A stretch of DNA of 64,000 nt from Zoogloea ramigera (lineage in GTDB: Bacteria > Pseudomonadota > Gammaproteobacteria > Burkholderiales > Rhodocyclaceae). The DNA is taken from NCBI RefSeq assembly GCF_006539865.1, contig NZ_BJNV01000011.1, positions 1 to 64,000 on the forward strand. Direction: 5' to 3'. Under the pieces are notes generated by a model. That model searched no databases. It had not been told where the DNA came from and saw nothing but the letters and a program-made list of their open reading frames with translations. Below, piece by piece: positions 1-29,735 of the stretch; positions within the stretch are counted from its first letter, which is position 1, and each line of letters opens with the position of its first letter. Both the position numbers and the translations under genes were made by a program.

Positions 1-604
1 ACGTGACTTGATGCTGCTCCCAAACAATGCCGACAACTTGAGGTTGAACGGAGTGAATCTCAGTATTTGGTGTTTTCCAAGCGTGCCGCTCTTTTTCAAC
101 AGACTCCCGAACCAACGCGGAGCAATCGGAAGGCTCAAGCACAGCACCTGCGATGAACGGACGGCTAGATGATCTTGATAGCCGAGTTTCACTTCGATGA
201 GGCTTGATCGAATTGGAAAGCGGAAAATAAAGGTGTGATACGGTCGTTTGCTGCGACCGGCTAGGCAATCGATCTCGCTCGAGAAATGTTACGCCATCGG
301 CGGTAAGCGCAAGCTCTGCGAGCCGAAGATCCATATAGTCTTGCGATGTTGGGCCGCTCAAGACGCCCATATAGATCAGATTTTCAACGCTTGGCCCGAC
401 CAGTTCAGTGGCCGAAGCCACGCCAAGTTGATGCTCAAAAATTTGAGACAGTGTCATGTCAGCGAGCCCCGGGGTCGCCCGATAGCTACCGCATAGCTTC
501 ATTACCGTCCGCTCAAATACTGTCGGCGTACGCACGGTCTGGTACGTCACCTCCGACTCCACTTCGTAGAGCGGCATGCCGACAGAGAAAGAACCCAACT
601 TCAT
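1..604 (-). CDS. Unknown protein, N-terminal 201 codons, runs off the left edge
   Basis: An uninterrupted reading frame starts at the ATG at 604 and stays open to position 1. The ATG overlaps the TGA of the upstream helicase gene (ATGA at 604-601), the same coupling used throughout the defence operon, so this is very likely a translated, co-transcribed gene. The visible product starts MKLGSFSVGMPLYEVE and is soluble, with no signal peptide, membrane segment or zinc motif. I do not recognise the family. Its position after a DNA2/UPF1-type helicase suggests a partner of that helicase, perhaps a nuclease or accessory subunit, but nothing in the visible part shows a catalytic motif. Confidence 0.8.
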   Translation of the reverse strand, partial: MKLGSFSVGMPLYEVESEVTYQTVRTPTVFERTVMKLCGSYRATPGLADMTLSQIFEHQLGVASATELVGPSVENLIYMGVLSGPTSQDYMDLRLAELALTADGVTFLERDRLPSRSQQTTVSHLYFPLSNSIKPHRSETRLSRSSSRPFIAGAVLEPSDCSALVRESVEKERHAWKTPNTEIHSVQPQVVGIVWEQHQVT

Positions 605-3600
605 CGCTGATTACCTCGATTGCCGTTGCTGGGTCGCGGCGTGAACTTGCGCTGACCAGGGTTATCGTTTCGCATGAGTCGGCTCGCCGGAATCAGACGG
701 GCGTCTCTATCCAGCTGATCGAGAATGTCCTTATAGACCGTGCGTGTCGTTGAGCCCTCCTGATCCATATGCGGTAGCGTTACCTCATATGACTCGTACA
801 TGCTTCTTGCACCAAAAACAATCAGTAGCTCCTGCGCTCGAGAGAAGGCCACGTTGATGAACTCGTATCGTGCGACATTCGCACGGCTAGACCTGCGCCT
901 TGCCATACCCTGACTTCTGGTGTCGATTCCGTCATTGCGAACCAGACTAACCAGAATGATTGGCTTCTCCTTACCCTGATACCGTATTACGGTGTTGACC
1001 TCTACATCCAGGCATTCGAATTGCCCGGAAGGTTTGACCGTACGGATCGCCTCGCAGATTAACCGGCATTGCCGCGCGTAGAAGGAAACCACGCCGACTT
1101 GACGCCGCTTCTGAGCTGAATATCCAAGAAGGGCACTCTGCTTGTCGAGCTGAAGCAATGTGTGGGCAATCAACTGTGCTTCGAGGCGGTTGCTACGCGC
1201 AGGTTTACCCGCTGCGTCCATGTCCTCCTTGTGGATCTGCCCTTCCAAATTGCGAGATGTATCCACCCACAGGACGTGGTCACCCTCGTGAACGACTTTC
1301 TCCTTTTCTGCACGAGGAATTTCTGAGGACGGCAAACTGATGTTCTTGGGAATTCGATTGCCCCCACCATCAAGCGCGGGCTTGACGATAGATTTCCCAT
1401 CTGCGTCGACCAGAACCAGCCCATGATTGCGATCGTAATTCGGGAACTCTAGCCCGCAGGTCAGGCGGCGCTCATAGAAATGGTTCACCATTGTCATGAT
1501 CTGCGGATGCATACGGAACTGAACCTCGAGGCGTGCGCGTATCGCATCGTCTGCCGCTTCAAAGTGCGACTTGAACAAGGATGCCGTAACCATCTTTTCG
1601 AATCGGTGCAGATTTTGCCGGGTCAAAGCCGTTCGACTCTCTTGCTCGTCTTGCTCCGCCTCTTCAACCACGTCGCTGAATGTCTGGGCATCTGCCCCCT
1701 CCTGAAACAATGGTGGAAGCTGACGGTGATCACCCACCAAGATCGAGCGCCGCGCACGCATTAGAGGCAGCAGCATCTCCAGAGGAGTCGCCTTGCTGAC
1801 TTCATCGATGATCGCAACGTCAAAACTTACCTGACCAGAGTCTTCGAGCGTTTGTTCACGTTCATTGCATGTGATGGCGACCACGTTGCACTGCGGCACA
1901 TAGACTTCTTTGAAGTGCTCCCAATCAGACTGAGCTGAAGCAGGTCTGCGAAGATCATTCACCCAGTCCTGGATCAGTTGCCCCCACACATACTGCTCAT
2001 CCTTCTGATTTTGTATTTGTTCCTCCAGCGTACGGACCTCGCCTTGGCGAACCAAGATTTCTTGGCTGAGCAAGGCAGCGACATCGATCGGGTTGTCGTT
2101 CGCGGAGTTTTCTGCTGCCTGCGCAAGAAGAAGCTCTGATGCACGAGCAAGGGAACTTGTCAGAGACTGATTTACCCTCGGCTCTGTCCTGATGTGCTGC
2201 TCGAGCTCCTGTTCGCGCTGCCGCCACTCAGATTCATCGATTTCCGGAACCTCACAGAGATCAATGAGCCTGTACACCTCTGCAATCAGTCGTTCCAAAG
2301 CCTGATCAATGGCCGCATTGCTGGTACGCAATGCGGCCAAACGATCGGCAAGCTCTGCGCCGACCTGTTCTGCGTTGTCGATGGCGGCACACCAGCGATC
2401 AGCGTCCACGAAGAGATCGCTGTACAGATCGGCACTCAGCCCACCGGCAGAACTGTTTCGAAGTTGCTTGATCTCCTGACGCTTGGCTCTCCAGGCTGAG
2501 ACCAAGCTATCGTCATCGTCAACCCGCTCAGCTAGGGCCTTTTCTTCGGCCTCCAGTTCCGCAATGCGAATAGCCACATCAGGACTCTGTAGAGATCGGG
2601 GCCCCGCCGCATACAAGCGAGCCACATCCTTCTCCAGTTCCTGTTCACGTGTCCTCAACTTGCGCCAACACCTCACCAGTCCTGCAAGCATTTGAGGACG
2701 TTGTTGTGGCACGGCGTCCCAATCGGCCTTCGAGACCGGGAGTTTTGTTCGCGCTGCCGTCAACCCGAAGAGGCTGAAAGCTAGCTCTGATGACAGTGGT
2801 TCAGGCAGCGGGCACCCATCTGCAACATCCTCTTCGCCTGTCACCAAGAATTCCCTTAGGGTCGAAAGGCGGTTCCGCTTTCGTTTCGCGTCCTCGTGCT
2901 TCTGTGCCTGCTCCTGCAGCCTTTGCCAGGCCAAGTCTCTCTCAAGCTTTGCCCGGACACGACCTTGCTCATATAGATCAATACCTCTTTGTGCTTCGAC
3001 AATGTCGCGGCGCACATATTCGGCTCTGTTCAGCCAGGACTGAAGCTGGCTCATCCGATCGGCAGTTTCACGCCAAGGCTTCAAGAATCGGTCGCTCGCA
3101 TGCTCCGCCAGGGATGAGTAATACCGGGACAAAGCCGCTTGCTGAACAAAGGACTTTCCATCACCAGAGACTTTATCCAGGTCGCGTGCTAAACGAATGA
3201 CCCGCAAATCAGGATGTTTGCCGAGCCGTTCTAGAGCGTTGTCAACGGCCGTGTGGGCTTGACTGGCCAGCAGTACGCGCTCACCGCGACGGGCCAATTG
3301 CATGATGGCTTCTGCGATCACGGTTGTCTTCCCTGTACCCGGCGGCCCTTGAATCAGGCACAGGTCAGGCGCGGTCAAGATCTTCTCGACTGCATCTTTC
3401 TGGAACGGGTTCAGATCATCTCGGAACCAGTGCGTGATCGATTCTTTGGCCGAAGGCTTCTTAGCTTGTCGGGCATCAAACAGGTAGGAGGAGAGGTAAG
3501 GGGCATAGCCTCCCTGATCTTGCAAGCGCTTGATCGCCATTTCATGGCGGCGAATCAAAGCAAGATCACCCGCAGCCGATACGGACAAGAACCCTTGCTC

Positions 3601-4545
3601 GGGGATTCTGGAAAGGATCATCTGGCGAATGTTTGCCAAGTCTTCCGCAACTGTTAGCTGATTCTGGTCGTCTTCAGAGAGAGCAACCACGACTTCAGCG
3701 AGGTGTGGCTCATTCCATTCGCAGTCCTTGATCTTGTCCTTGTGTGGAGCGATCTTCGCCATCGCCTCAGGTTGGCCGAGCTCAAAACCTCTCGGAGCAC
3801 GCTTTGCCCCTTCCCGATCGCTGATTCGAAAGGTCCAGGGATCGACAGACACATTAAGGTCAAATGCCATCACGTCTTGACGTGAGAGCGACCGATGAAC
3901 TTCACGCAGGGACTGCTCGCTCTCGCCAATCACTCTGAAGACGATCCTGTCCTCTTGCCACTCGCGCTGAATGAACCTCAACCCACGGGTTTTCTCCGAC
4001 ACGAGCTTGCGCTTCCACTTCAGGAATTCGGTCCAATCGACCAGTTTCTCCCGGGTGGTGATTGAAATGGGAGGTAGCTCGAATGCCAACTCGCGGGTCA
4101 AGGCATTGTTGTTGCGTTGGATTCGTGGCGGCTGCGGGTTGTCCTGATACACCACCACCGAAAGGCTGCGCTCGTAGCTGTGCCCAGGCGCATCAGCGAC
4201 TTCAAACAAGTCCTGAACCATGAACACAGGGCTGGGAACGCGAGTCGGCCAGAAGCCCCTTACCGCCAACGAACATCCCCTGGGAAACGGCCAGGGCTGC
4301 TCCGGGTTGATGACCGGGCGAAGAGCAAGGCTCAAGTTATCGTCAGGGCGGTTCTCGATACTGAGGTTTGCCGCGTAGTACTCCATCGGCATGCCATGTG
4401 GGAAAAGCAAATTCAACATCCCCTCGATGCGATCGCCCCCAGTGAGGAAGTCCCGGAGCTGAGGATGTCGGCGAGCCAGTTCTCCTACCGTGCGCGAAAC
4501 GCGTTCGCGATTTCTGTCGTCAACCCATATGTACAGATTGGCCAT
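601..4545 (-). CDS. Large SF1 helicase, UPF1/DNA2-like, with central coiled coil
   Basis: Predicted superfamily 1 helicase of 1,314 aa. Walker A (GPPGTGKTT) lies near residue 400, followed by motif Ia (LLASQAHTAVDNAL). A long charged, probably coiled-coil insert covers roughly residues 480-880. Walker B (IIDEVSK) lies near 910 and motif III (GDHRQLPPL) near 938. The C-terminal motifs include VISL-type VSLVRND and NVAFSRAQ near 1225. The N-terminal 390 residues are of unknown fold. A longer form from TTG at 4554 is possible; I prefer ATG 4545 because it is the first ATG, with GGGAGG 12 nt upstream. The gene lies 123 bp downstream of mad8 in the same direction and overlaps the next gene by 4 bp. 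It is not one of the eight named mad genes, so it may be an accessory to MADS or half of a separate two-gene module. Confidence 0.9.
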   Translation of the reverse strand: MANLYIWVDDRNRERVSRTVGELARRHPQLRDFLTGGDRIEGMLNLLFPHGMPMEYYAANLSIENRPDDNLSLALRPVINPEQPWPFPRGCSLAVRGFWPTRVPSPVFMVQDLFEVADAPGHSYERSLSVVVYQDNPQPPRIQRNNNALTRELAFELPPISITTREKLVDWTEFLKWKRKLVSEKTRGLRFIQREWQEDRIVFRVIGESEQSLREVHRSLSRQDVMAFDLNVSVDPWTFRISDREGAKRAPRGFELGQPEAMAKIAPHKDKIKDCEWNEPHLAEVVVALSEDDQNQLTVAEDLANIRQMILSRIPEQGFLSVSAAGDLALIRRHEMAIKRLQDQGGYAPYLSSYLFDARQAKKPSAKESITHWFRDDLNPFQKDAVEKILTAPDLCLIQGPPGTGKTTVIAEAIMQLARRGERVLLASQAHTAVDNALERLGKHPDLRVIRLARDLDKVSGDGKSFVQQAALSRYYSSLAEHASDRFLKPWRETADRMSQLQSWLNRAEYVRRDIVEAQRGIDLYEQGRVRAKLERDLAWQRLQEQAQKHEDAKRKRNRLSTLREFLVTGEEDVADGCPLPEPLSSELAFSLFGLTAARTKLPVSKADWDAVPQQRPQMLAGLVRCWRKLRTREQELEKDVARLYAAGPRSLQSPDVAIRIAELEAEEKALAERVDDDDSLVSAWRAKRQEIKQLRNSSAGGLSADLYSDLFVDADRWCAAIDNAEQVGAELADRLAALRTSNAAIDQALERLIAEVYRLIDLCEVPEIDESEWRQREQELEQHIRTEPRVNQSLTSSLARASELLLAQAAENSANDNPIDVAALLSQEILVRQGEVRTLEEQIQNQKDEQYVWGQLIQDWVNDLRRPASAQSDWEHFKEVYVPQCNVVAITCNEREQTLEDSGQVSFDVAIIDEVSKATPLEMLLPLMRARRSILVGDHRQLPPLFQEGADAQTFSDVVEEAEQDEQESRTALTRQNLHRFEKMVTASLFKSHFEAADDAIRARLEVQFRMHPQIMTMVNHFYERRLTCGLEFPNYDRNHGLVLVDADGKSIVKPALDGGGNRIPKNISLPSSEIPRAEKEKVVHEGDHVLWVDTSRNLEGQIHKEDMDAAGKPARSNRLEAQLIAHTLLQLDKQSALLGYSAQKRRQVGVVSFYARQCRLICEAIRTVKPSGQFECLDVEVNTVIRYQGKEKPIILVSLVRNDGIDTRSQGMARRRSSRANVARYEFINVAFSRAQELLIVFGARSMYESYEVTLPHMDQEGSTTRTVYKDILDQLDRDARLIPASRLMRNDNPGQRKFTPRPSNGNRGNQR

Positions 4546-4668
4546 AACAAACAAAGTCCTCCCAGACCCAACGGCTCAGCTCCCACAAGGTGTGGGGTGG
4601 CTTCCGCGCTTTTTCTATAGGTTGTGTCTGTTCTTGATGAATAGATACCGTCAAGGACAGCGCGTAGT

Positions 4669-7600
4669 TCAGTCCTTCACGGCCACCCGGGTTGCCCCAC
4701 CGTGCTGCGTAACCCTGGGTCTGCACCGAAGCTTGACGGCCCCTTTGGAAAACGACTCATCCGTCGCCTTGCTTGACCACACATAAGCCTCTCCGGCTTT
4801 CAGCAGGGCCATGCGCTCTGGCGTCAGGTTGCCGAGTGCGGCGTTGGCTTTCTGGATGTGCTTTAACCAAGCAGGCGAATTGAACTTGTGCATGATGATC
4901 TGGCTGGACAGCTCGATCAGGCTGACAGGCACAGATGGTGGGTCTTGGCTTGCGACCATGATGCTGACGCCCTTGTGCCGCATCTCTCGGACCACTTCGA
5001 TGAGCCCGGCAACCAGGTCGGGACTCTCGATGTATTTGTGGGCCTCATCGAACACCACCAGCTTGTTGAAGCTGCGCCCATCGATGCGCGCATCTGCGAA
5101 CAACTGCAAGAGCACGACGAACAGTCCGAGGGCTTCGTCCTTCTCGATGAATTCGTCCCGCAGGTCCACGATGATCAGTCGACCTGGCCTCACCACCTCA
5201 GTGAGCGAGGTTCCGTCGTTGATGTACTCAGCGGCCAGGTCGAGGCGCATCCGAGCCAGCTCCTTGAGGTGATCAGGAACCGACGATGCATCGATGCCTA
5301 CACGCAAGCCCTCAAGGGTGATGTCGTCGCGCATCGCCTTCATGATGCGCATGATCTGACGGATGTACGTGGCTTGGTTGCCTACGGCGCCCATCAAAAA
5401 TTTCCAGTGCGAAGCCTTCAGCTCTGAAGCCGAGAACTGCAACGGACGTACTTCGATGTCGGGGTACTCGGCCTGACGCTCTTCGATCTTGTCGGCTGGT
5501 ACGAGAAGCAAGACATCTGCGAGTGCCCTCGGCTCCGCGCCATATACCTCCTTCAGCGCGCGAACCTGATCTTCCACCGAGTTCGCTCCCACCATCGACG
5601 TGAACTCGGGCTTGTAGTCCATCGTCGGGCTGTAGTGGAAGATCACCGTGGACAGCGGCTCAGGCAGGCAGTTGATACCAGGGATCTGCAGCGAAGCCAT
5701 CTCTGCCACACTGCCCAAGGTGTAGCTCTTGCCGCCGCCCTGAACGCCGAACAGGCTGATGGTGTGGGTCTGATTGAGGTCAAGTGCCACCTTGCGCCCA
5801 GACACTTCACCAATCAGGCCGTACTGCGGTGTTGCTCCCGTGGCACCGAGCATGATGTCGTAAGCCACGCGGCTATAGATAGCCTCGCCATCTTGAGTCT
5901 GCGGCCGTTTAACGGACGCACTCAGGGGAGCCTCCTCCCCCGCAATAAGAACCGATGCGGGTGCCGGCTCCACAGTTGCTGTCGCATCCGGTTCGTCTAC
6001 TGGCGGTGGTGGCGTGTCAGTGCTTGCAGCCTGCACGGAGCCAACTGGCTCGGGAGCCGCCAGCACCACGGGGGCAGGTTCTGGCTCACGCACGTGCACG
6101 CTTGAAGCCACCTCATGTTGCGTGTACCTGAACCTCGGACTGTCGTCCCACGCGAGTGTTCGATCCCGTGGCGGGCTGAGGAAGGCTGCCGTTTCAAAAG
6201 TAGGAACGGCAGGCGCCAATTCCCTGCGACGAAGCAGTTCTTGCGTGACCTCTCGCGCTGTGTCAGCAGAGCGCGCGTACTGGACGCTAGCCACCGTTTC
6301 GGTGTCAGTCACTGCAGACTCCACCAACTGTCGAATCAAATCACTACCGATCCGATAGAACTCGATGCCGTTTTCATGCTCGGCGGGCTCAGTCCCTGGC
6401 TTGCTGAAGTCAAACACCACGGCACTTCGTGTGAACTGCAGGGTGTAAGGCCGCTCATCAAGGCGTCGCAGGAAGTAGTGAGCCTCTTCGGCGGCTTCTG
6501 GCAAGACCACGCCATAGCGTTCGGAGCGGTCTAGGTAAAAGCCCAGCAGTGCAGCAAGATCGCGATTCTTGATGGGGCGGTCAGGCCGATCTACGTCAGC
6601 CATCCTGGGGTCGAAGTGATAGGCCAAGACGTGCTCGGACTGAGCGATCTGATCAGCGATGGACGCCTTCAACTGCGCGTAGGCAGCCACATCACCTACT
6701 TGGCTGTAGCACTTCACTTCGACCAGCCGACATGTCACCACACGGCTTGCTGGGTCGAGGTCGAACAGGGCAAGGTCAGTCCGACGGAAGCTGACTTCAT
6801 CGCCCATTTCCTCAGCGCTTTGCTTCAACGCCTTGTACAACTCCAAGTGCGCGTCCAACGGCACGACGACCTGGTTCTGGAAAACGCCTTGGTGTTCGAG
6901 GAACAAACGCGAGAGCGCCAAGCCCATCGCCTCGGCCCGCTGGGATGAAGAGGACAGTAGCTTCAAGGCCAACCGTCCGGACAACGATCGAAGCTGATCC
7001 AGCATCACCAAGGCATGTCGGCCCGTGTTGGGCAGCCCGTACTCCCCCAAGATGGGAATCAGCAACGACTCAAGCTCAGCAACGGAGCGCGAGGTGATCG
7101 CCAATCGATGGCTCATGGCGCTCGCCATGTCGGGCGAGTGGTCAATCAGATAGTCTGGCCGCGTGGCATGGCGACGATGGTCGAAGAACTCGATCCCCAA
7201 GTTCCGATCAATCGTGAGCACCCAATCACTGACCTCATGAACCTGATGGAGCATGGCACGCTCGTCTGCCGACAGGCTCAACGCCACAACAGGGCGCGCA
7301 TGCGGCAGGTATTGACTGCGAGCAACTGTCGCCACTGCGACCGAGACAGCACGGGAAACACCACCCATGAGGTCGGATAACGCCTCTGCTCCCTCCAGCG
7401 GCTGCGCCGCGCCATGAAGCGGACGACGCAGCCAAGTGATGGACTGCTCATCTTCCAGATAGTCCACTTCGAAGGGCTGAACCAGACCATGGACAAACGA
7501 AGAGTCGTCACTGTCCTGAACATCAACTGCTCGAATTTCCTCAGCAGGGAACAAGTCAAACAAGAAGGACAGATGCGCCGCATGCAATTCCGGATCCTCA

Positions 7601-14900: not shown

Positions 14901-16090
14901 CCGGTGAAGAGTTCGTAGAGGATGACCCCAGCGGAAAAGATGTCTGATGCGCTCGACGCGGCACCCGGCTCCCGGAACGCTTCCGGCGCCACATAGGCTT
15001 TCTCCACCAGATCAACAATGTCCGTCGCAATCGTCAGGCTGCGGTCCACACCGGGCTTGGCGAAATCGAAGTCGGTGATGCGTGTGGTGCCGTCCTGGCC
15101 AATCAAGATCGCGCCCGGCGTCAGGTTGCGATGAACCACACCGTGATGGTGGGCGTGGGCCAAGGCCGCCAACAGGTCTTTGGCCACGCGCCACTTCTGG
15201 TCCAGCGTCAGCGCCAACTGAGGACGAGCCATATGCACGGTCAGCGCTTGGCCCGGTGCATCGTCCAGGATCAGGATGAAAGACTTGTCGTCATCGGTCG
15301 GGAAGAAGTCCCGCGCCGCGACGATGTTGGGATGCAACGGCAGCTTAGACAGCGCCCGGTAAGCATTGGCAATGCGGTTGACCTGCGCCTTGCGCACATC
15401 CTCAGGCTGGTAAGGGTCTGCCTGGTACACCCGCAGGCGGGCCGTGCCACCCGCGAACGCGTTCTCGGCACGAAACTCGGTGTAGGCCTCCGCCGCCCCG
15501 AGCTTTTCTTTCACCTGCCAGTGCCCAAAGCGCTGCACGGCTGAAGCGGGCTTCACCACCTTCAAGGCATGCAGAATCAACCCCTGCTGCTGCAGGATGT
15601 TTTTGGAGAAGCGCACCGGGATGCGCGTGGCATCTTTGAAGTAACGCTCTGCGTCCTTCAGCTTCACCACCCGGTCTGCATCCAGCTGCTCGCGGTCATT
15701 CAGGTGAGCATCAGGCGCGGTGAGCAGGATGGCGGCATCGACATAGATACCGTCCAGTTCATTCCGACCGGGATTGGCCTGAGTCACCAAGCCCTTCACC
15801 GTGCGCGCATGACCGCGCAGCTTGCCCATCGGCGACGGATAGGGAGCGCGCCCCTCGGGGTACCACTTGCTGCCGTACACATCGATGGTGCCGCGCGTGC
15901 CCTTCACGTCGATCAGGTAAAGGGCGTGCGGGGTCAGCAGCGCGATGTCGATCTCAAAGCGCTCGCCCTGCCGCTCGATCTCGAAGTTGTGAAGCAGAAC
16001 GAAACTGTCTGGCAAGCGATCCCGCAGGTAAGCGATCGCGCTGCGCTCTGCATCGTTGACCGGCTGGCCTATTGGGATCACTTTGGCCAT
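11915..16090 (-). CDS. mad6: MADS protein MAD6: NERD nuclease-like + pseudokinase + Ser/Thr kinase + P-loop ATPase
   Basis: A 1,391-aa multidomain protein. Residues 12-130 are a NERD (nuclease-related) domain with D48 and the D61-V-K63 pair. Residues 190-460 are a protein-kinase fold whose catalytic loop reads HRN (320-322) instead of HRD, with DFD (340-342) for DFG, so it is probably a pseudokinase. Residues 500-750 are a second kinase domain with an intact glycine loop (GRGSFG, 507-512), lysine K529, catalytic HCDIKPRN (D622) and DFN at 639-641; this one may be active. Residues 800-1391 start with a P-loop (GNAGDGKT, 842-849) and resemble a STAND or AAA-like ATPase. A CxxC-containing stretch (CELCDLKDSC) follows. 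It starts one base after the stop of the HsdS-like gene. It matches MAD6, the protein kinase of MADS. Confidence 0.9.
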   Translation of the reverse strand: MAKVIPIGQPVNDAERSAIAYLRDRLPDSFVLLHNFEIERQGERFEIDIALLTPHALYLIDVKGTRGTIDVYGSKWYPEGRAPYPSPMGKLRGHARTVKGLVTQANPGRNELDGIYVDAAILLTAPDAHLNDREQLDADRVVKLKDAERYFKDATRIPVRFSKNILQQQGLILHALKVVKPASAVQRFGHWQVKEKLGAAEAYTEFRAENAFAGGTARLRVYQADPYQPEDVRKAQVNRIANAYRALSKLPLHPNIVAARDFFPTDDDKSFILILDDAPGQALTVHMARPQLALTLDQKWRVAKDLLAALAHAHHHGVVHRNLTPGAILIGQDGTTRITDFDFAKPGVDRSLTIATDIVDLVEKAYVAPEAFREPGAASSASDIFSAGVILYELFTGERPFAGEPTTVWDRVGEFLNKPSALRPELNEAFDAWLQSLCAFDEHQRLTASAALAALNALLQPVAQVASQAAEAPKPEATEVDDAQTDYLNLVAGHRLTHKFIVEKKLGRGSFGVVYKVIDTLGDVARTVKLIVSDRHSTLERLKKEYRHLVHIPEHPHVVRVLDADVIPGRDIPFLVFEYVEGADVGDMIHDRLLSPEDALELGKQVIEGLVHLHAQGFHHCDIKPRNLLWTQKGAKIIDFNVSVRADDKESRGGGSRRYLPPDFDPEVIPHNGERADRDLYALGLTLYEALTARYPWDTTEPPINKPAPDPRELSGFADLAPELVNVVLKAIAPRRAERFHTAVDFRDALAEVRHARRVQTVSLAAMVTAVSSGQPALAESAPNSNAFVSHLLTLYSQSRRSNAGTRGMDALGFSAYVDTALDRALLPAVLQGEFRLVLISGNAGDGKTAFLQRLEKEVEARGGAVNRGLANGSELSLEGKRYLINYDGSQDEGNKDNNQVLLDFLAPFQGNDAATWRPQETRLIAINEGRLVDFLAAHERDFPALTALVRRAFATGEAESGVAVVNLNLRSVVADDANNTQDGSILERTLRSIVRPENWAACELCDLKDSCYALHNARSFQDEIAGPRLLERLKTLYTMAHLRGRLHITMRDLRSALSFMLIGNRDCGEIHALYASGKHDDVARSFYFNSWMGGGQATSDRLLTLLSDLDVGKQEDPRFDRGLDFVQPDDRALFRFERRGQFDFEVLKRLFGDLPRGVSDSSVRHRARKHREYVAMARRKHFFERRDASWEKMLPYRSAKRMVEIVRGEMPIDELTGEILHAINRGEGLQRPERLGASLALQLRQVEHGTVRSYRLFPVEGFGLQVQDFAAKARFVEHLPTGLLLKYQGQGQGAISSELIINLDVFEMLVRLNEGYRPSVEEMQGFYLCLGVFKNSLNAQPYREILLTTTGHDFYRLARHDDGRVEMRLLHGPVGCARQEEAAESGARGN

Positions 16091-16091
16091 C

Positions 16092-17510
16092 TCACTTCTC
16101 TCCTAGAACTCTTGCTTCCAACATGTCTCGCGCTTCGCGCTCCCAAACGCAAGCTTGATCTCTCAATTCCCGTGCGCGAATCGCAGGGGCGCCGATATAT
16201 TCCCGGTCTGTGCGCGAAGGCCAAGGCACTTGAATTCGCTTGACGCGTTGCTCATCGGTGTGAGGAATGCTGGACCCAGCTGCTTCTCGCGAAAGCAATC
16301 TAACTCCATGCTCGCTAGACAGGAGTGTGAACAGATAGCCAACGTCGCTGTCGTCTTCAGGGACGATCCGAATCATGTTGTTGCTGCAGGAGAACCCGTC
16401 GAGATAGCTGCCGACCATCACCGAGCGTCCAATGAGGCCTCCCAGTTGACCGGCCTCCTGCACAACGATCATTCCTTTCCTGAGCAGCAGGCCGTACTCA
16501 GCGGCCACGCGCTTCATCAAGTACTTGTCTGAGGTAGGGGCCAGCTCGAACACGTCCCCTCCCGTGATGTAGGGACTGCCAAACTGAGGATCGGACGCAT
16601 AAAGTCGCTTGAAGATACCTGGAATGAAGACCTCTGCAATCTCTCCCAGCTGGTGATTTTCGGTCGCACCGTCTAGTGCAATTCGTGACTCTGAATTCCT
16701 GGCACTGTAGTAATACGCGTCCCCTCGATCTTTAAAGACTTCGCTTGAAACCATTGCGACGTCTGGTTTTGGTAAAGAGGCAACGGGTGTTGGCTGCTTC
16801 AGCCCGAGTCTCTTGTACAGGCGATTTGCGGCTTCGCGGAGCGATTCCACCGCCTCCGCACGTGCGCGGGCAGCGGCATCTACTTTCGACGCAATTTCGT
16901 GTTCGGTCGGAATATCAAATCTTGGAACCGGCAGGTCGGCGATGTGTTCCGGCTCAATGTGCTGAATGATGGCGCCATATGTGCCAGAGACGACCAAAGG
17001 CACGCCGTAGCGGCTGGAGAGGAATGCGTGCAGATAACCCGGTTGAATAGCGTCAGGATCTGGGACGACCTTCAATACGTCCTGCGACGACCAGACGCCC
17101 GCCATATCTGGCCGCACATAGGACATCCGGCCGATCGTTCCGGAGCACGAAATCATCGTCATCCCTGGCCGCAGTCGAAGATAAGACAACCGTGAGGACT
17201 TCGCATCCTTCGCGCGCAGCAGTGAGAGCGTACTCAGGTCTGCGAGCAAGAGGGTGCCGCTGCTAATAAATGGCACACCGTGCTCAGGCGACTCAACATA
17301 ATTGCGCTTGAACATCGGTCCGTTGTAGATGCCACCTGCGTATCCTTTAGTGAGGGTTCGCAAAGCGTCTTTGCGAACATTCAAACGCCGCAGAGCATCC
17401 CTGGCTTCTTGAGCGCCAGACATATAAGGGTTGCAATCGAGTCGTCGGCCGCCTTCGTCAAGCCAACCGGACCGGACAATGCGTGCATTCTTGAAGCTCG
17501 TGAAGGTCAT
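16092..17510 (-). CDS. mad5: MADS protein MAD5, HsdS-like specificity subunit
   Basis: A 472-aa protein with the two-repeat layout of type I specificity subunits. Each half has a target-recognition-like segment (first: GTLLLADLS...SCSGTIGRMSYV; second: ITGGDVFEL...QEAGQLGGLIGRS) followed by a helical spacer (AAARARAEAVESLREAANRL near residues 225-245, and a C-terminal helix rich in R, E and A). It should give DNA sequence specificity to the HsdM-like methyltransferase encoded four genes upstream. ATG 17510 overlaps the stop of the preceding gene (ATGA), which rules out the longer frame to 17579. No separate HsdR restriction subunit is present; the mad6-mad8 products presumably take that role. 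Confidence 0.88.
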   Translation of the reverse strand: MTFTSFKNARIVRSGWLDEGGRRLDCNPYMSGAQEARDALRRLNVRKDALRTLTKGYAGGIYNGPMFKRNYVESPEHGVPFISSGTLLLADLSTLSLLRAKDAKSSRLSYLRLRPGMTMISCSGTIGRMSYVRPDMAGVWSSQDVLKVVPDPDAIQPGYLHAFLSSRYGVPLVVSGTYGAIIQHIEPEHIADLPVPRFDIPTEHEIASKVDAAARARAEAVESLREAANRLYKRLGLKQPTPVASLPKPDVAMVSSEVFKDRGDAYYYSARNSESRIALDGATENHQLGEIAEVFIPGIFKRLYASDPQFGSPYITGGDVFELAPTSDKYLMKRVAAEYGLLLRKGMIVVQEAGQLGGLIGRSVMVGSYLDGFSCSNNMIRIVPEDDSDVGYLFTLLSSEHGVRLLSREAAGSSIPHTDEQRVKRIQVPWPSRTDREYIGAPAIRARELRDQACVWEREARDMLEARVLGEK

Positions 17511-18163
17511 ACGGCGACCTCCAGGGGGAACCATGCAAGAAATGCTGCGTGCATCTCGGCAAAAGCCGTATCGGTACACCCCTTGATCGAGATGTGCTCA
17601 GCCAGCTTCTGGTAGATCGCAGAAGAGCGAGGTTGCCGGGTCTGCTTCAGCACCCATTCGGCGGCCTCCTTCGGCCGCGTTGGTTTGGCGGCGTTTGCAG
17701 GCCACCATCCGCTCTCCGCCAGATGCTGGCGCAGCGACTTGTCGCCTTTGTAGCGAAGCACGTCTGCCACCTGCGGCTTGTCCTGCCACAGCCAGTTCTC
17801 TAACTCGGGGTCGATGGCTATCACTTTGACCGCATCCTCAGCCCAGCCACTGGCCACCAGCTTGGCCGTGATGTGGGCAACGATGGCATCCTTACCAGGC
17901 GAGCCGTCCCATTCGCAATCCAACACCACGAGGGCGCGATGGTGGCTGTTCTGGTAAGGGCGCAACAACTCGTGGCCCTTGGTGTAGACGCCAGGGTCGT
18001 TGCCGCCTTCGTCCACCAGCAGGTCAGCACCGACATCAGTGTTGATCTCGAAGGGCGAGCAACCGAGACTCAGGTGCCAAGCCTCGCGCTTGAAGTAGCC
18101 ACGGAAGGTGGCCGCCATATTGCTGTCGGCCACCAGGATGACGCACGGTCGCTTGTTTATCAT
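17507..18163 (-). CDS. mad4: MADS protein MAD4, small TOPRIM/DUF4276-like partner of the AAA ATPase
   Basis: A 218-aa protein starting at ATG 18163, overlapping the stop of the ATPase gene by 4 bp. Acidic motifs at the ends of predicted strands (VILVADSN, LVVLDCEWDGSPG, VIAIDPELENWLW) resemble those of DUF4276 or TOPRIM-like proteins, which often follow an OLD/AAA15-type ATPase in defence loci such as PARIS-like pairs. If so it may be a metal-dependent nuclease or a regulated effector. This relation is by motif pattern only; the assignment to MAD4 rests mainly on gene order. Confidence 0.78.
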   Translation of the reverse strand: MINKRPCVILVADSNMAATFRGYFKREAWHLSLGCSPFEINTDVGADLLVDEGGNDPGVYTKGHELLRPYQNSHHRALVVLDCEWDGSPGKDAIVAHITAKLVASGWAEDAVKVIAIDPELENWLWQDKPQVADVLRYKGDKSLRQHLAESGWWPANAAKPTRPKEAAEWVLKQTRQPRSSAIYQKLAEHISIKGCTDTAFAEMHAAFLAWFPLEVAV

Positions 18164-19533
18164 CCCAGCACCCCCGCTGCGAACAGGCTGCCAAGATCGA
18201 TGCCACCTCGCCACTCTTGCAGGCGAGGATGATCCGTCCCGGCGACCATCTCCACACCACCCTCGCTGGCCAGTCGTGCACACAGCAATTGATCCAGCTT
18301 GGCGCGCGCTAGCACGACCGGCGAATGTGATGACACCCAGACTTGGCTGTCGTACATGGACGAGAGCGATTGCAAGACCGCTTCGATGGCACGGGGATGG
18401 ATACCGTTTTCTGGCTCCTCGGTCACCAAGATGGCCGGCTGCTTGCTGAGGTAGGGCAGCAGCGTCAGTGTGAGGATGCGCAGGGTGCCATCCGACAAGC
18501 CGGGTGACGGCACTTTGAAGTCGCCCTTGTAGCTGACCACGAAGTAGGCGTGGTGGTCGTCCTCACGTTCACGTACTTCGATGTCAACGACCTGCGGCAA
18601 CGCGGTTTGCACGTGGGCAATCCAGTCGGCATAGCGCTCGCTGCGGTAGTTGGCAGGAGCACCCTCAGGAGCCCCCTCCCGCTTCAAGTCCAGCGCGAGC
18701 CATGGCACGTTTCGACCGTCCGCTGTGATCGCTTTGGGCTGACCTGGTGGGCAGGCAAACCGCATTTCCTCCCAGTCAGGATTGAGAAACACCGTTTCTG
18801 TAGTCAGTAGACTATGCAACCAACGTGACGCGGGATACTCATGCTCCGACTCAAAGAGCATCCGCGGCATTGCAAGCAAGGTATTGCCAATGCCGACTTT
18901 TGTGGAACGAGTTCGAGCTCCTGGTGGCGGAACTTCTGGCGTAAATTCAGCCGTTTGGCCAAATTCGCGCTGCAAGATCATTCGCCAGCCCTTGCCCTTC
19001 CGTTCGCCCACGCGAACGCCCTGATACCCAGGCTCCTCACGATTCGGTTTGAAGGCCTCCGGGAAGACGAAGAGGAACTCCTGAACCACATGCAGATCTC
19101 GATCTTCAGAGACTCTGAGCCCTAGCTCATATCGGATATGTGAAGGCCAGCGCTTTTTGTCGATGTCCAACGCGGATTGAGTTTTTTGCCGTTGAGCCTT
19201 ACTCAATCGTTGAAACATACCTTCGACGAGTTTTGACTGGACCTCTTCTGGCAATCTCGCCTCGATGGCGAAAGAAAAGTCATCCCCCCGACCAGCAAAC
19301 ACGAGTTCTCTAAGACTACTGGCGCGAGCTTTGCCTTCCGACGACTTGCGACGACGCGGGACGAATGCATCGATTACATATTTAGCGTCCAGGAGGTCGC
19401 CGAATAGCCCCGGCAAATCGAGTAGCGTGCTCTTGCCAGAGCCGTTAGCCCCGACGAGCACACGAAAATCGCCAACATCGATGCCAAGGTGTTCAAAGCA
19501 GCGATAGCGTGTGGCTTCAAGTCGCGTGATCAT
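18160..19533 (-). CDS. mad3: MADS protein MAD3, AAA/ABC-type ATPase
   Basis: A 457-aa SMC/ABC-like ATPase of the AAA_15/AAA_21 group. The N-terminus carries Walker A (GANGSGKST, residues 28-36), the ABC-type signature is LSDGTLR, Walker B is ILVTEEPENGIHP and the H-loop region reads SSHSPVVL. This layout is shared with OLD-family and AriA-like defence ATPases that sense invading DNA or phage proteins. The start ATG overlaps the last bases of the methyltransferase gene and its stop overlaps the start of the small downstream gene, so the three are translationally coupled. It matches MAD3 in the MADS order. Confidence 0.88.
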   Translation of the reverse strand: MITRLEATRYRCFEHLGIDVGDFRVLVGANGSGKSTLLDLPGLFGDLLDAKYVIDAFVPRRRKSSEGKARASSLRELVFAGRGDDFSFAIEARLPEEVQSKLVEGMFQRLSKAQRQKTQSALDIDKKRWPSHIRYELGLRVSEDRDLHVVQEFLFVFPEAFKPNREEPGYQGVRVGERKGKGWRMILQREFGQTAEFTPEVPPPGARTRSTKVGIGNTLLAMPRMLFESEHEYPASRWLHSLLTTETVFLNPDWEEMRFACPPGQPKAITADGRNVPWLALDLKREGAPEGAPANYRSERYADWIAHVQTALPQVVDIEVREREDDHHAYFVVSYKGDFKVPSPGLSDGTLRILTLTLLPYLSKQPAILVTEEPENGIHPRAIEAVLQSLSSMYDSQVWVSSHSPVVLARAKLDQLLCARLASEGGVEMVAGTDHPRLQEWRGGIDLGSLFAAGVLG

Positions 19534-21572
19534 TTGCTTGGCTCCGGATGTTGGGCGCGGAACTCGGCATACGCCTTGGCAATTTCGGGCAGGTCGTCGT
19601 CGAGGATGCGCTCCTTGCGGTGGAGCGTGCGCACTTGCAGGCCACCGCCGATGCGGACCTTCTCTTCGTGGCTGACATCCACCAGGATTTCTTCTCCGTC
19701 AGGGTGGCGCTTGTAGAGCGTGTTGCCACGGCGGTCGAAGCCCACCTTCTCGGCGACCGCCATGAAGACGGGATAGTCCTTCTTCTGGCCCAGGTCTTCT
19801 GCCTTGATCACCTCTTCGGGCTTGCGCTTCAGGAATAGCAAGCTAGTCAAGATGTTGACGTTGGCCTCGACAATGAAAGATTCCACCGGCAGGTCGATGC
19901 TAGCCAGCACCCAGCAGTGGCGAAGAATCCAGTAACGGATGTACTCATCGCCAGGGTTGCCCAGGATGCCGTCAGGCAAGACGATGCCCGCACGCCCCCC
20001 CGGCTTGAGCCACTTGACGCAACGCTCGATGAACAGTACCTCTGGCGACACAGCAGGCTTAATGGCGTTGGTCATCACGAAGCCATCGCCTTGCCGCTCC
20101 CAGCGGCGGGCCAGCTCGTACTGCTCCAAGATGGTCTTTTCGGTGACCGGAATGTCCGAGCCAAACGGCGGGTTGGTCATCAAGACATCGATGGTGCCAA
20201 GCGGGATGGCTGCCTTCGCAGCAGGCACACCAGGCAGGTGGCCTGCCGGGAACTCCAGCGAGTTCATGTGATAGAGGTGGCCGAGCGAATTGCCAGCCAT
20301 CATCACGTTCATCTGTGCCGCGCGAACCAGGAAGGGGTCGAAGTCGGCGCCGAACAGGTTGTTGGCCGCGAAGTGGGCCAACCGGTCTCGAATGGAGACG
20401 AACTCTTCCGTATTCTCGTCGCCTGCCTTAATGCGCTTCTCTTCGTGGAAGACCTTGTTCAGGTAGTTCAAGGTCTCGACCAGGAAGCCACCCGTACCGC
20501 AGGACGAATCGAGCACGCGCTCATGCTCTTTGGGTGCCAACATCTTGACCACAAGACTGATGGCGCCACGCGGGGTGAAGTATTGGCCGCGATCTCCACG
20601 CAGGTTGGTGCCAACGATTTCTTGGTAGGCCGTGCCCTTGGCGTCCACATCGGTGCGACCAAAGTCGTAGCGGGCCAGTTCGGAGACGATGAATGCCAGT
20701 GCGCGGTCGGACAGGGTGATCTCTTCGTTGCCCTTGAACAGGCCGTCGTACTTCTTCTTCACCGCCTCAAAAAGCGGCTTGATGCGCAGGCGGATTTGCT
20801 CTCGGCCAGCAGCTTCAAACGGCTCGAACGGCCCTACCCAGAAGCGACGCGCATCGTTGGGCTGCTGCTCGTCATACATCTTGCAGAAGATGAGGTACAG
20901 GAACTGCCAGAAGGCCGCATCCTTGGGCATGCCTTCATTGCCGTGGATGTAGTTGTGGCAGCGGCGGAACGCTGTGCGCAGCATGACCGGATCGGCACGG
21001 CGCAGGCGCCCCATGGAGCGGCCTTCCACACTGAAGGTGTCGTCACCCAGGGGCCAGTCGCCGATGGGCTTGAACTTGGTGTCGAAGCGGGTGACTTCTT
21101 TCTTGAAGAAGAAGAACTCCAGTCCGTTGGTCCACAGGCCGTAGTCGCAGCTTTCGACTTCGGCCATCACGGTTTCCAGCACCTCGAACTCTTTGCGCGC
21201 CTCTTCCGGATCACGCATGCGATAGGCACCTTTGGTGCCGAGCTTGGGCTCTTTCTCCACCACCACTGCGCGGTAGAGGTTGTCCACCGTGTGTGCTTGG
21301 CCAGGCTTGAAGATGGCGATGTCGAGCTTGCGGTTCTTACCCAGCACCTTGACCTTGAAGTCAGGCTCCATGTCTTCGGCAGCAATGCCGTACTCATGGA
21401 TGATGGCGCGGGCGATGCGCTGGCGGACTTGCTCTTTGTCGCTGTCCTTCACCGGGTTGCCGGTGATGTAGTCAAAGACCTTGCCCTCTTCGAGCGCTCT
21501 CTCGGGCGCTTGGGCTTCTTGATCAAGGTCGCTCATGTCGTTGTTGTCCTGTGCGGAGCGCTGCTTAGGCAT
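19530..21572 (-). CDS. mad2: MADS protein MAD2, HsdM-like adenine-N6 DNA methyltransferase
   Basis: A 680-aa type I-like N6-adenine methyltransferase. The S-adenosylmethionine-binding motif DSSCGTGGF lies near residue 355 and the catalytic NPPF near 467. The N-terminal 200 residues resemble the HsdR_N/type I R N-terminal fold (KLDIAIFK, VVVEKEPK) and are followed by an HsdM helical region (GQYFTPR). It should modify host DNA at the site chosen by the HsdS-like protein and so mark self. ATG 21572 is supported by AAGGAG 7 nt upstream and by an 8-bp overlap with mad1; the longer frame to 21674 lies wholly within mad1. Confidence 0.92.
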   Translation of the reverse strand: MPKQRSAQDNNDMSDLDQEAQAPERALEEGKVFDYITGNPVKDSDKEQVRQRIARAIIHEYGIAAEDMEPDFKVKVLGKNRKLDIAIFKPGQAHTVDNLYRAVVVEKEPKLGTKGAYRMRDPEEARKEFEVLETVMAEVESCDYGLWTNGLEFFFFKKEVTRFDTKFKPIGDWPLGDDTFSVEGRSMGRLRRADPVMLRTAFRRCHNYIHGNEGMPKDAAFWQFLYLIFCKMYDEQQPNDARRFWVGPFEPFEAAGREQIRLRIKPLFEAVKKKYDGLFKGNEEITLSDRALAFIVSELARYDFGRTDVDAKGTAYQEIVGTNLRGDRGQYFTPRGAISLVVKMLAPKEHERVLDSSCGTGGFLVETLNYLNKVFHEEKRIKAGDENTEEFVSIRDRLAHFAANNLFGADFDPFLVRAAQMNVMMAGNSLGHLYHMNSLEFPAGHLPGVPAAKAAIPLGTIDVLMTNPPFGSDIPVTEKTILEQYELARRWERQGDGFVMTNAIKPAVSPEVLFIERCVKWLKPGGRAGIVLPDGILGNPGDEYIRYWILRHCWVLASIDLPVESFIVEANVNILTSLLFLKRKPEEVIKAEDLGQKKDYPVFMAVAEKVGFDRRGNTLYKRHPDGEEILVDVSHEEKVRIGGGLQVRTLHRKERILDDDLPEIAKAYAEFRAQHPEPSK

Positions 21573-21780
21573 TGCGGGGCTCCTTGTCGTCAAAGTCATC
21601 ACTGCTGGCAGCGGCACCGCCCTCACGCACCCAGGCGTCCACGTCTTCTTTCTTGAACTTCCAGAAGCGCCCAACCTTGTGCCCCGGCATGCCTTTGGAG
21701 GTCACCCAGGTGTAGATGGTGTCTTTGGCTACGCCGAGGTAGTCGGCGATTTCATCGACAGAGAGCCAGCGGTCGTCCAT
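21565..21780 (-). CDS. mad1: MADS protein MAD1, excisionase-type helix-turn-helix protein
   Basis: A 71-aa protein of the MerR/Xis HTH_17 type: LSVDEIADYLGVAKDTIYTW is the helix-turn-helix, and the wing includes GHKVGRFWKFKKEDVDAW. ATG 21780 is preferred because the extra residues up to 21810 need a TTG start. It is the first gene of the MADS operon and overlaps mad2 by 8 bp. Small HTH proteins at this position usually bind the operon's own promoter or the modified DNA; which applies here cannot be seen. Confidence 0.88.
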   Translation of the reverse strand: MDDRWLSVDEIADYLGVAKDTIYTWVTSKGMPGHKVGRFWKFKKEDVDAWVREGGAAASSDDFDDKEPRNA

Positions 21781-22749: not shown

Positions 22750-22769
22750 GGGGCACCGTCGCTGAAAAC

Positions 22770-22836
22770 ATAGTGACCGACTATATTTATCGCCGCTATC
22801 GCAACGATAAATGTCGGCCAGGGGAAAATCCCCTGG
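22770..22836. other. Candidate oriT: three adjacent inverted repeats upstream of the relaxase gene
   Basis: Three perfect inverted repeats are packed into 67 bp: ATAGT-gaccg-ACTAT (22770-22784), ATTTATCG with a 12-nt loop to CGATAAAT (22785-22812) and CCAGGGGA-aaa-TCCCCTGG (22818-22836). The first arm contains TAGTG, similar to the TAGTGTG core near the nick site of the pMV158/MobV family. The position directly upstream of the relaxase gene fits an origin of transfer. The exact nick site cannot be assigned. Confidence 0.55.
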
Positions 22837-22850
22837 ACCCCGCCGCCCAA

Positions 22851-29380: not shown

Positions 29381-29735
29381 ACACGGGTGAGGCCACCCGA
29401 ATGGGGATGTCCGCAAAAAATGTATACGGAAGTGACTACGGAATGAGCCAAACCGCGCTGAGACCCAGTAAAAATGGCACTTCCAAGGCCATCTTTCACT
29501 TTAACGTCTGAGCCTCCGGGAGCCCATCAGAGGGCTGTGCAAGCCCTCTCAAAAAACCGCAAAGCCTGGTGCCTGCGGTTTTTTTTATGTCCAGCCGTTT
29601 CCCTCCGGCACAGCGCTCCCGCGGTCTTCGCCGCCGCCAGGGCTTTCTTCGAATGCCGCCAAGCTTCCTGGCCGGCGAGCGAGGCTTTATCGCCCGCCGC
29701 GATGCGTCTTCACTGCCAAACAAGTCTTTCCTGGC
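29381..29735. other. Island/chromosome border region without a gene
   Basis: A 355-bp gap. I see a short stem GGGTG/CACCC just after the XRE stop, a hairpin GAGGGCT-GTGCA-AGCCCTC near 29530-29550 and the terminator at 29551-29586. Frames across it look like chance frames. The shift from island to chromosome-like composition happens here. No tRNA, tmRNA or direct-repeat attachment site was found. Confidence 0.45.
29551..29586. terminator. Bidirectional Rho-independent terminator
   Basis: AAAAAACCGCA, a 12-nt loop, TGCGGTTTTTT followed by two more T. The 11-bp stem has T-runs on both strands (eight on plus, six on minus), so it can end transcripts from the island and from the ABC-transporter gene, which stops at 29736. 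Confidence 0.85.

What the first reader, a model, noticed from the sequence alone, without database searches (positions are those of the whole stretch)
601..21780. Complete MADS locus followed by an extra helicase gene and a coupled unknown gene
mad1-mad8 are all present and intact in the order I know for the methylation-associated defence system of Pseudomonas. In the same direction, 123 bp past mad8, come an SF1 helicase and an unknown gene that overlaps its stop. Neither belongs to the eight named genes. They may be an accessory module of a MADS subtype or a separate defence pair.
Basis: partly seen in the sequence, partly recalled or inferred. Interest (0 to 1): 0.8.

Follow-up and report, generated by a model that had tools for sequence, protein, structure and literature searches.

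The report
Mobile five-gene helicase–PIN operon behind MADS
The extra helicase and unknown gene next to a known bacterial anti-virus system are the first two genes of a separate five-gene cassette, found elsewhere without that system, that probably defends bacteria as well.

Summary
mad1–mad8 are complete on the minus strand. A Upf1-like SF1 helicase starts 123 bp after mad8, and an unknown gene overlaps its stop by 4 nt. The unknown gene looks short only because the contig ends inside it. Its remainder lies at the end of another contig of the same genome, and close homologues are 810 aa with a C-terminal PIN nuclease domain. Neither a MADS accessory nor a "pair" is right. The two genes open a conserved five-gene operon: Upf1-like helicase, PIN protein, long-helix protein, Clp-type AAA+ ATPase, NrdG-like radical-SAM enzyme. 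All five occur in the same order in 11 of 11 loci compared. MADS is nearby in two (one element lineage), BREX in three, neither recognised in six. Of 8 MADS loci examined, 2 carry it. A near-identical MADS element in another genome has different cargo in the same slot, with similarity ending exactly at the mad8 stop. So it is an independent cassette, carried here on a probable ~36 kb element at the 3' end of ychF. Defence is likely by association but untested. The libraries and papers searched do not describe the five-gene set. The proposed mechanism is inferred.

The parts
1..604 (-). 5' part (codons 1-201) of the PIN-domain gene, second gene of the operon; cut by the contig end; continues on contig C29 (L045 16060-14225)
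   Evidence: full homologues L003:13951-16383, L004:4455-6887, L005:13945-16377; PF13638 PIN_4 at residues 670-787 of the L003 protein
601..4545 (-). Upf1-like SF1 helicase, first gene of the five-gene operon (ATG at 4545; the ORF call gives an upstream TTG at 4554)
   Evidence: PF13086 AAA_11 4e-39, PF13087 AAA_12 6e-30; helicase motifs in 11 of 11 copies
4546..4668 (-). 123 bp spacer between mad8 and the helicase; cassette boundary (similarity to L004 and L005 starts at the helicase ATG; similarity to the MADS loci L049 and G557 stops at the end of mad8)
   Evidence: 0 sigma-70-like sites in 4400-4800
4669..10245 (-). mad8
10242..11918 (-). mad7 (start placed by comparison with the annotated L049 copy; ORF call 10242-11963)
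11915..16090 (-). mad6 (NERD + two protein-kinase stretches)
16092..17579 (-). mad5 (type I specificity-like; start not refined)
17507..18163 (-). mad4 (start inferred; ORF call 17507-18283)
18160..19533 (-). mad3 (AAA_21 ATPase)
19530..21539 (-). mad2 (N6 adenine methylase; start inferred from L049; ORF call 19530-21674)
21565..21780 (-). mad1 (excisionase-type helix-turn-helix)
29503..29511 (+). probable attR: AACGTCTGA, direct repeat of the last 9 bases of ychF on contig C29 (L045 9236-9244); only copy in the window on either strand
   Evidence: ychF named by TIGR00092

Best explanation
The helicase and the unknown gene are genes 1 and 2 of a self-contained, mobile five-gene operon: Upf1-like SF1 helicase, PIN-domain nuclease, long-helix (coiled-coil) protein with an invariant Tyr-x-Gly-x-x-Cys region, Clp/ClpB-D2-type AAA+ ATPase with its own N-terminal domain, NrdG-type radical-SAM enzyme. 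It most probably defends against phages or other mobile elements. In this genome it is cargo, together with MADS, of a probable ~36 kb element at the 3' end of ychF. Shown: gene content, order, conserved catalytic residues, co-inheritance, independence from MADS, cassette boundaries. Inferred mechanism: the helicase loads on foreign or aberrant nucleic acid, more likely RNA than DNA. The PIN protein, whose gene overlaps the helicase gene here, cleaves it. The AAA+ ring, with the long-helix protein as adaptor, assembles, restrains or releases the helicase-PIN complex. The radical-SAM enzyme primes the complex by a radical modification of a partner protein, perhaps the long-helix protein; in the two genomes without NrdD it cannot be an NrdD activase.
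For: All five genes in the same order in 11 of 11 loci compared: own genome, L003-L009, L051, L052, L134; the named ones include beta-, gamma- and alphaproteobacteria. Lowest identity to the own copy: helicase 31%, PIN 16%, long-helix 33%, Clp 45%, rSAM 47%. Neighbours: MADS at 123 bp in 2; BREX-3 in L005 (BREX gene 1.6 kb away, WYL gene between) and L134 (~7 kb); BREX-1 in L009 (~7 kb); SoFic-like gene next to L051 and L004 (other). Similarity to L004 and L005 starts at the helicase ATG, and MADS similarity ends at mad8. In G557 the same integrase-MADS element carries a KAP NTPase and two other genes in the slot. Motifs: helicase, Clp Walker A/B, sensor 1, Arg finger, rSAM CxxxCxxC and GGEP in 11 of 11; four PIN acids in 11 of 11, in L052 over two ORFs with the last two read by eye. 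Nearest solved relatives by sequence: SMG6/EST1A for PIN (5e-9, 63 positions); DNA2, SMUBP2, UPF1 for the helicase. NrdD absent in 2 of 3 module genomes, where the operon rSAM is the only match of its profile at E<=1e-5. PIN nucleases with required catalytic residues occur in validated defence systems DS-3 and DS-5 (PMC13092281, passages).
Against: No phage or nuclease experiment exists. Six of 11 loci show no recognised MADS or BREX gene in the stretch held, and in L009 and L134 BREX is ~7 kb off. The operon is rare: 3 of 399 order genomes, and 1 of 398 phylum genomes, the window's own. The best solved helicase relative is DNA2, a DNA enzyme. The gene overlap of helicase and PIN is not universal (gaps in L009, L051). 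PIN_4 is below cut-off in L052 (20.1 against 21.9 bits) and modest in L134 (27.9). Structure predictions were uninformative (PIN pLDDT 40, long-helix 65). PADLOC, NCBIfam and Pfam give no system-level name.
Confidence: 0.7

Rival explanations
1. The operon is an accessory of MADS: it is read through from mad8 and acts only with MADS, as the reader first proposed.
For: Same strand, 123 bp gap, no sigma-70-like site between; the linkage is kept in two genomes, window and L003 (96.3% DNA identity over 14,553 bases).
Against: No MADS found beside 9 of 11 copies. 6 of 8 MADS loci examined lack it. The two linked loci are one element lineage, and a sister element has other cargo in the slot. The promoter scan knows only one promoter type.
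Confidence: 0.1
2. The operon works on DNA, not RNA: a DNA2-like helicase hands single strands to a PIN/FEN-like nuclease, with Clp and rSAM as regulators.
For: Best solved relative of the helicase profile is DNA2 (4e-38), ahead of SMUBP2 (1e-33) and UPF1 (5e-25). BREX and MADS, found near some copies, act on DNA (established knowledge).
Against: The PIN domain matches PIN_4 and SMG6/EST1A, RNases by established knowledge; no DNA-binding Pfam domain among the matches of the five proteins.
Confidence: 0.25
3. Not defence: an RNA quality-control or stress operon (an NMD-like surveillance set) or a plasmid-stability device that happens to ride on mobile elements.
For: Helicase and PIN resemble the UPF1-SMG6 pair of eukaryotic mRNA decay at domain level; five of the 11 loci are on plasmids; six loci have no recognised MADS or BREX neighbour.
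Against: Patchy and rare distribution, mobile context, MADS near two and BREX near three copies; no antitoxin-type Pfam match among the five proteins.
Confidence: 0.22

Closest known systems
MADS (mad1-mad8; Maestri et al. 2024, seen only as a reference entry in PMC12904381)
   Same: Neighbouring genes on the same strand in the window and in L003; all eight mad genes are present in the window.
   Different: None of the five operon proteins matches a mad profile beyond a shared ATPase core (helicase to mad8 7.5e-8; Clp to mad8 0.002); most copies of either examined lack the other.
Mokosh (MkoA/MkoC helicases)
   Same: The helicase C-terminal half matches PADLOC MkoA at 2e-100: same SF1 Upf1-like branch.
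   Different: No kinase, NERD or PLD Pfam match in the helicases of the window, L006 and L134 or in the four partners.
PLuB system helicase (NCBIfam NF040671)
   Same: Helicase matches at 2.5e-43.
   Different: 147.8 bits against a cut-off of 999; no paper in the library holds the name, so the system could not be compared.
CoCoNuTs (PMC11090510; abstract and passages seen)
   Same: Uses a UPF1-like helicase with coiled-coil nucleases predicted to target RNA.
   Different: A type IV restriction (McrBC) branch; no McrB/McrC match was among the Pfam matches of the five proteins. Membership not tested further.
vWA-MoxR ternary conflict systems (PMC7159879; section 11 and passages read)
   Different: No vWA match in the five operon proteins; the passages read do not give helicase, PIN, Clp and NrdG-like rSAM together.
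Dodola DolB and candidate PDC-M37B (PADLOC)
   Same: The Clp-type protein matches PDC-M37B (3e-29) and DolB (3e-19) over its AAA+ core: Clp-like ATPases occur in other defence sets.
   Different: Match is confined to the AAA+ core; the other four proteins do not match those systems.
Eukaryotic UPF1-SMG6 (nonsense-mediated decay)
   Same: Closest solved relatives include UPF1 for the helicase and SMG6/EST1A for part of the PIN domain.
   Different: Domain-level similarity only; architectures and other partners differ. A working parallel, not kinship of systems.
NrdG (class III ribonucleotide reductase activase) and prokaryotic viperins
   Same: rSAM matches NrdG (86.9 bits, cut-off 126.1), with CxxxCxxC and GGEP in 11 of 11; weak pVip match (1e-4).
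   Different: Below the NrdG cut-off; NrdD absent in 2 of 3 genomes; viperin NCBIfam model 17.4 bits against 180.
Hachiman HamAB (start of abstract seen in listings)
   Same: Helicase sensor plus nuclease effector as working principle.
   Different: Two genes; relation by sequence not tested.

Membership tests
MADS (the eight upstream genes) | mad1-mad8 in order, each matching its PADLOC profile | tested here: met
MADS (the helicase operon as further genes) | Regular presence behind mad8 | tested here: not met
   2 of 8 MADS loci examined, one lineage; helicase profile at E<=1e-30 in 0 of 4 other mad7-positive order genomes
Mokosh | SF1 helicase of the MkoA/MkoC type | tested here: met
   MkoA 2.4e-100, best stretch residues 745-1283
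Mokosh | Kinase/NERD or PLD domain in the system (from a table passage of PMC10952713, and recall) | tested here: not met
   No such Pfam match in three helicases or in the four partners
vWA-MoxR ternary system | vWA and MoxR genes | tested here: not met
   No vWA or MoxR-named model among the Pfam matches of the five proteins; the Clp protein matches AAA_5 (4e-9) far below AAA_2 (6e-50)
CoCoNuT / McrBC | McrB-type GTPase and McrC nuclease | tested here: inconclusive
   No such match among Pfam or PADLOC results of the five proteins; no dedicated search of the neighbourhoods
NrdG | Score over the NCBIfam equivalog cut-off | tested here: not met
   86.9 against 126.1 bits
NrdG | NrdD partner in the genome | tested here: not met
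   NrdD in 1 of 3 module genomes
PIN_4 nuclease | Match over the Pfam cut-off | tested here: met
   4 copies tested: L003 70.2, L009 71.0, L134 27.9 bits against 21.9; the longer of the two L052 ORFs 20.1, just below
PIN_4 nuclease | Four acidic residues | tested here: met
   11 of 11, in L052 on two ORFs
Anti-phage defence system | Protection against phage | not testable with these tools
   no experiment

The most novel reading that the evidence does not exclude
A bacterial NMD-like immune system of a kind not described before: a Upf1-type helicase and an SMG6-type PIN nuclease police foreign transcripts, armed by an orphan NrdG-like radical-SAM enzyme that modifies a long-helix partner (invariant Tyr-x-Gly-x-x-Cys) and gated by a Clp-type AAA+ ring. 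It circulates as an exchangeable cassette, at times near BREX and MADS.
Probability: 0.22. Interest if true: 0.88.

Novelty: new variant of a known kind. Interest (0 to 1): 0.62.

Why it matters
If confirmed, a radical-SAM activase without its usual glycyl-radical partner and a Clp-type unfoldase would be built into a helicase-nuclease immune operon, a combination not found in the libraries and papers searched. It would give a bacterial parallel to UPF1-SMG6 RNA surveillance. The finding also sharpens the MADS boundary: in this element lineage the genes right behind mad8 occupy an exchangeable cargo slot, so they should not be added to MADS.

Tried and rejected
MADS accessory: rejected on the two-way census and the slot exchange in G557. 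Mokosh membership: rejected, no kinase, NERD or PLD Pfam match. A two-gene pair with a small second gene: rejected, contig edge. NrdG function: rejected for two genomes.

Led nowhere: viral contigs. The long-helix profile found no relative, nor did mad7. The Clp scan kept the best 80 of 218 relatives; none of these 80 held a second operon gene over more than 60% of its profile. The long-helix protein found nothing in phages, and the Moellerella operon nothing in E. coli genomes by near search. AlphaFold models of the PIN (pLDDT 40) and long-helix (65) proteins from three close sequences were too weak, so no fold search was run. The Clp N-terminal domain gave no convincing solved relative (best 0.007). 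Longer seeds missed the attachment repeat before the end of similarity pointed to it.

Dropped or limited rows: 56 of the 57 class genomes matching the PIN profile matched only the PIN region and were dropped as lone PIN-domain proteins. Aeromonas hit H10 (16% coverage) and Phocaeicola L146 (no annotation) were not examined. One of six Moellerella records was read. The six loci counted 'neither' are L004, L006, L007, L008, L051, L052. No mad gene was found there by tblastn. BREX was judged from the record annotation in L006-L008, and from PADLOC on some flanking ORFs in L051, L052 and L004, whose upstream flanks are only 0.5-3.7 kb. One ATPase downstream in L052 (16663-19473) scores on SspH (4e-62) and mad8 (5e-47) profiles. 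tblastn with the window's mad8 found nothing in L052, and I take it for an FtsK-type translocase (recalled, not tested). The downstream side of mad8 in L140 is only 2.6 kb to the contig end, and that of L144 was judged from annotation.

Papers: PMC12839542 (section 35 part 1 of 2, and passages), PMC7159879 (section 11 and passages), PMC11090510 (start of abstract, passages), PMC13092281, PMC10853773, PMC12904381, PMC10952713 (passages). Searches gave no paper found to describe the five-gene set (the closest listed papers were checked only by term passages); subscription papers are mostly outside the library. One search found no paper on the mad genes.

Full report
1. What is in the window. The minus strand from 21780 to 4669 carries mad1-mad8 in order. 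Every gene matches its PADLOC profile, and the NCBIfam MADS1 and MADS8 models pass their cut-offs. 123 bp later an SF1 helicase of Upf1 type begins (ATG 4545, stop 601-603; AAA_11 and AAA_12). The next gene starts at 604 and overlaps that stop by 4 nt. The window starts at base 1 of contig C11, so this gene is cut. A profile of its homologues matches positions 1-198 at C11:5-604 and 198-789 at the very end of contig C29. C29 ends at 52060 and shares its last 8 bases with the first 8 of C11.

2. The operon. Behind the PIN gene on C29 lie three more genes in the same direction with 0-3 bases between or a short overlap: a 377 aa protein, a 617 aa AAA+ protein whose C-terminal half is of the ClpA/B second-ring type, and a 193 aa NrdG-like radical-SAM protein. 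The 377 aa protein has no Pfam family over cut-off, and a low-confidence model shows long N-terminal helices with good local confidence; I call it long-helix or coiled-coil protein. The same five genes in the same order are present in 11 of 11 loci compared. They were found by the helicase, PIN or long-helix protein alone, so the presence of the other genes is not a result of the search. Lowest identity to the own copy: helicase 31%, PIN 16%, long-helix 33%, Clp 45%, rSAM 47%. Motifs kept in 11 of 11: helicase GPPGTGKT, DEVSKA, GDHRQLPP; Clp Walker A, Walker B, sensor 1, Arg finger; rSAM CxxxCxxC and GGEP. The four PIN acids are kept in 11 of 11, using the C29 piece for the own genome; in L052 they are spread over two overlapping ORFs of 672 and 174 aa. 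The long-helix protein has invariant Tyr326, Gly328 and Cys331 in 11 of 11.

3. Independence from MADS. In the stretches held, MADS lies beside 2 of 11 (window, L003). BREX-3 lies near 2: L005 by PADLOC, with BrxC 1.6 kb away and a WYL gene between; L134 by annotation, about 7 kb away. BREX-1 lies near 1 (L009, about 7 kb). Neither was recognised in 6: L004, L006, L007, L008, L051, L052. Limits: L004 starts about 500 bp upstream; L051 and L052 have 3.6-3.7 kb upstream. L004 and L051 have a SoFic-like gene nearby. In L052 a downstream ATPase scores on SspH and mad8 profiles, but the window's mad8 finds nothing there. The two MADS-linked copies are one lineage: 96.3% DNA identity over 14,553 bases, same integrase and ychF beside them. 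From the MADS side, 8 loci were examined. The window and L003 have the operon. G557 has a KAP NTPase and two other genes. G625 and G634 have a RecD-like SF1 helicase with other Pfam domains. Piscinibacter (L049), Hymenobacter (L050) and Bacteroides (L144) have other genes. In the order sample mad7 occurs in 5 of 399 genomes; one of them, G663, gave no tblastn match to any mad gene in the stretch held. The long-helix gene occurs in 3 of 399, and both in 1 of 399, the window's genome. The helicase profile has no match at E<=1e-30 in the four other mad7 genomes.

4. Cassette boundaries. Upstream of the helicase ATG the window shares no extended similarity with L004 or L005; similarity (about 90% over the 31-32 bases compared there, then the whole gene) starts 1-2 bases before the ATG. 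MADS similarity to L049 ends 10 bases before the mad8 stop, and to G557 exactly at the mad8 stop (window 4669). In G557 similarity resumes 34 bases inside the 3' end of the integrase gene. The stretch between mad8 and the integrase is thus an exchange slot.

5. The carrier. A tyrosine-type integrase (Pfam Phage_integrase, Arm-DNA-bind_3) and then ychF (TIGR00092 over cut-off) follow the operon on C29 and in L003; DNA similarity shows the same integrase-ychF junction in G557. The last 9 bases of ychF, AACGTCTGA, occur once on the + strand of L045 (9236-9244) and once in the window on either strand (29503-29511, + strand). The second copy lies where similarity to G557 ends, at 29512. A 9-mer is expected about 0.5 times in the window on both strands (my arithmetic), so its position, not the match, carries the weight. 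If the contigs adjoin, the element is about 36 kb.

6. How it may work. Shown: composition, order, intact active sites, mobile context. Inferred: nucleic-acid sensing by the helicase, cleavage by PIN, control by the Clp ring plus long-helix adaptor, priming by rSAM. The helicase and PIN genes overlap in the window and in L003-L008, but are separated in L009 and L051. The PIN profile's best solved relatives are SMG6/EST1A (5e-9, over 63 positions); the helicase's are DNA2, SMUBP2, UPF1. RNA is favoured but DNA is not excluded. NrdD, the usual partner of NrdG, is missing from the window's genome and G495 but present in G693. The operon's rSAM is the only match of its profile in those first two at E<=1e-5, so it must have another substrate there. 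The invariant Tyr-x-Gly-x-x-Cys of the long-helix protein is a candidate only.

7. Known or new. PADLOC-DB 2.0.0 has no match for the PIN protein and only weak ones for the long-helix protein (JetC 0.007) and rSAM (pVip 1e-4). The Clp protein matches PDC-M37B and DolB over its AAA+ core, and the helicase matches MkoA. NCBIfam gives no system name over cut-off for the five; the helicase's PLuB_AAA match is far below its cut-off. Paper searches gave no description that I could find. PMC7159879 reports SF1 helicase with PIN as an effector combination, and a radical-SAM effector in another subsystem, so these are known themes. PMC12839542 (section 35 part 1, passages) lists PIN RNases as rarer backup effectors near BREX; its held text has no Clp or radical SAM term. 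In PMC13092281 (passages) two PIN systems need their catalytic residues for defence. I therefore rate the operon a new variant of helicase-nuclease conflict systems.

8. Limits. No experiment; 11 loci; uninformative structure predictions; rare system (1 of 369 class genomes with the full PIN protein; 1 of 398 phylum genomes, the window's own). Named organisms are limited to genome contigs found by close peptide patterns and to plasmids.

Noticed in passing
window 16092-19533; G557 C64 (L139/L145); L049: Within MADS, mad3-mad4-mad5 are far less alike (56/40/48% to G557; 71/52/85% to L049) than mad1, mad2, mad6, mad7 and mad8 (95-100%): the specificity gene seems to be exchanged together with mad3 and mad4 as a cassette.
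   Followed up: partly
L139 2344-8466 (G557): In the same slot behind mad8 of a sister element: a KAP-family NTPase gene and two genes without a clear family (one has only a sub-threshold Fer2_2 match); possibly another defence set.
   Followed up: partly
L141 6326-10006 (G634) and L140 114-2633 (G625): Right behind mad8 of two more distant MADS loci lies a different, RecD-like SF1 helicase (AAA_30 in both; UvrD_C_2 in L141), shorter in L140.
   Followed up: partly
L139 8491-14071 (G557): mad8 of G557 is read in two ORFs of 1056 and 800 aa, together covering nearly all of the window's mad8.
   Followed up: no
L052 7654-10186 (G495): The PIN domain is split over two ORFs that overlap by a few bases, with lysine- and glutamate-rich sequence between the halves.
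   Followed up: no
L052 16663-19473 (G495): An ATPase about 3 kb behind the operon scores on PADLOC SspH (4e-62) and mad8 (5e-47) profiles; probably an FtsK-type translocase (recalled, untested).
   Followed up: no
L054 9968-11854: A phage-catalogue contig (IMG/VR) carries a Clp-type ATPase that also matches the operon's N-terminal domain (35% over residues 8-587), without the other four genes in the stretch held.
   Followed up: no
L142 7535-15466 (G663): A mad7-like gene (240 bits) followed by a 1682 aa gene, with no tblastn match to any mad gene: perhaps a relative of DndFGH/SspFGH-type genes (recalled comparison; mad7 and mad8 have weak SspG and DndH matches).
   Followed up: no
window 21883-22905: Gene beside mad1 with sub-threshold Mob_Pre and Relaxase matches, suggesting the element may be mobilisable.
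   Followed up: no
L009 1-9000 and 21097-23079: The Acinetobacter plasmid copy has BREX-1 and a DarT-family gene on one side and a second radical-SAM plus ATPase gene group on the other.
   Followed up: no
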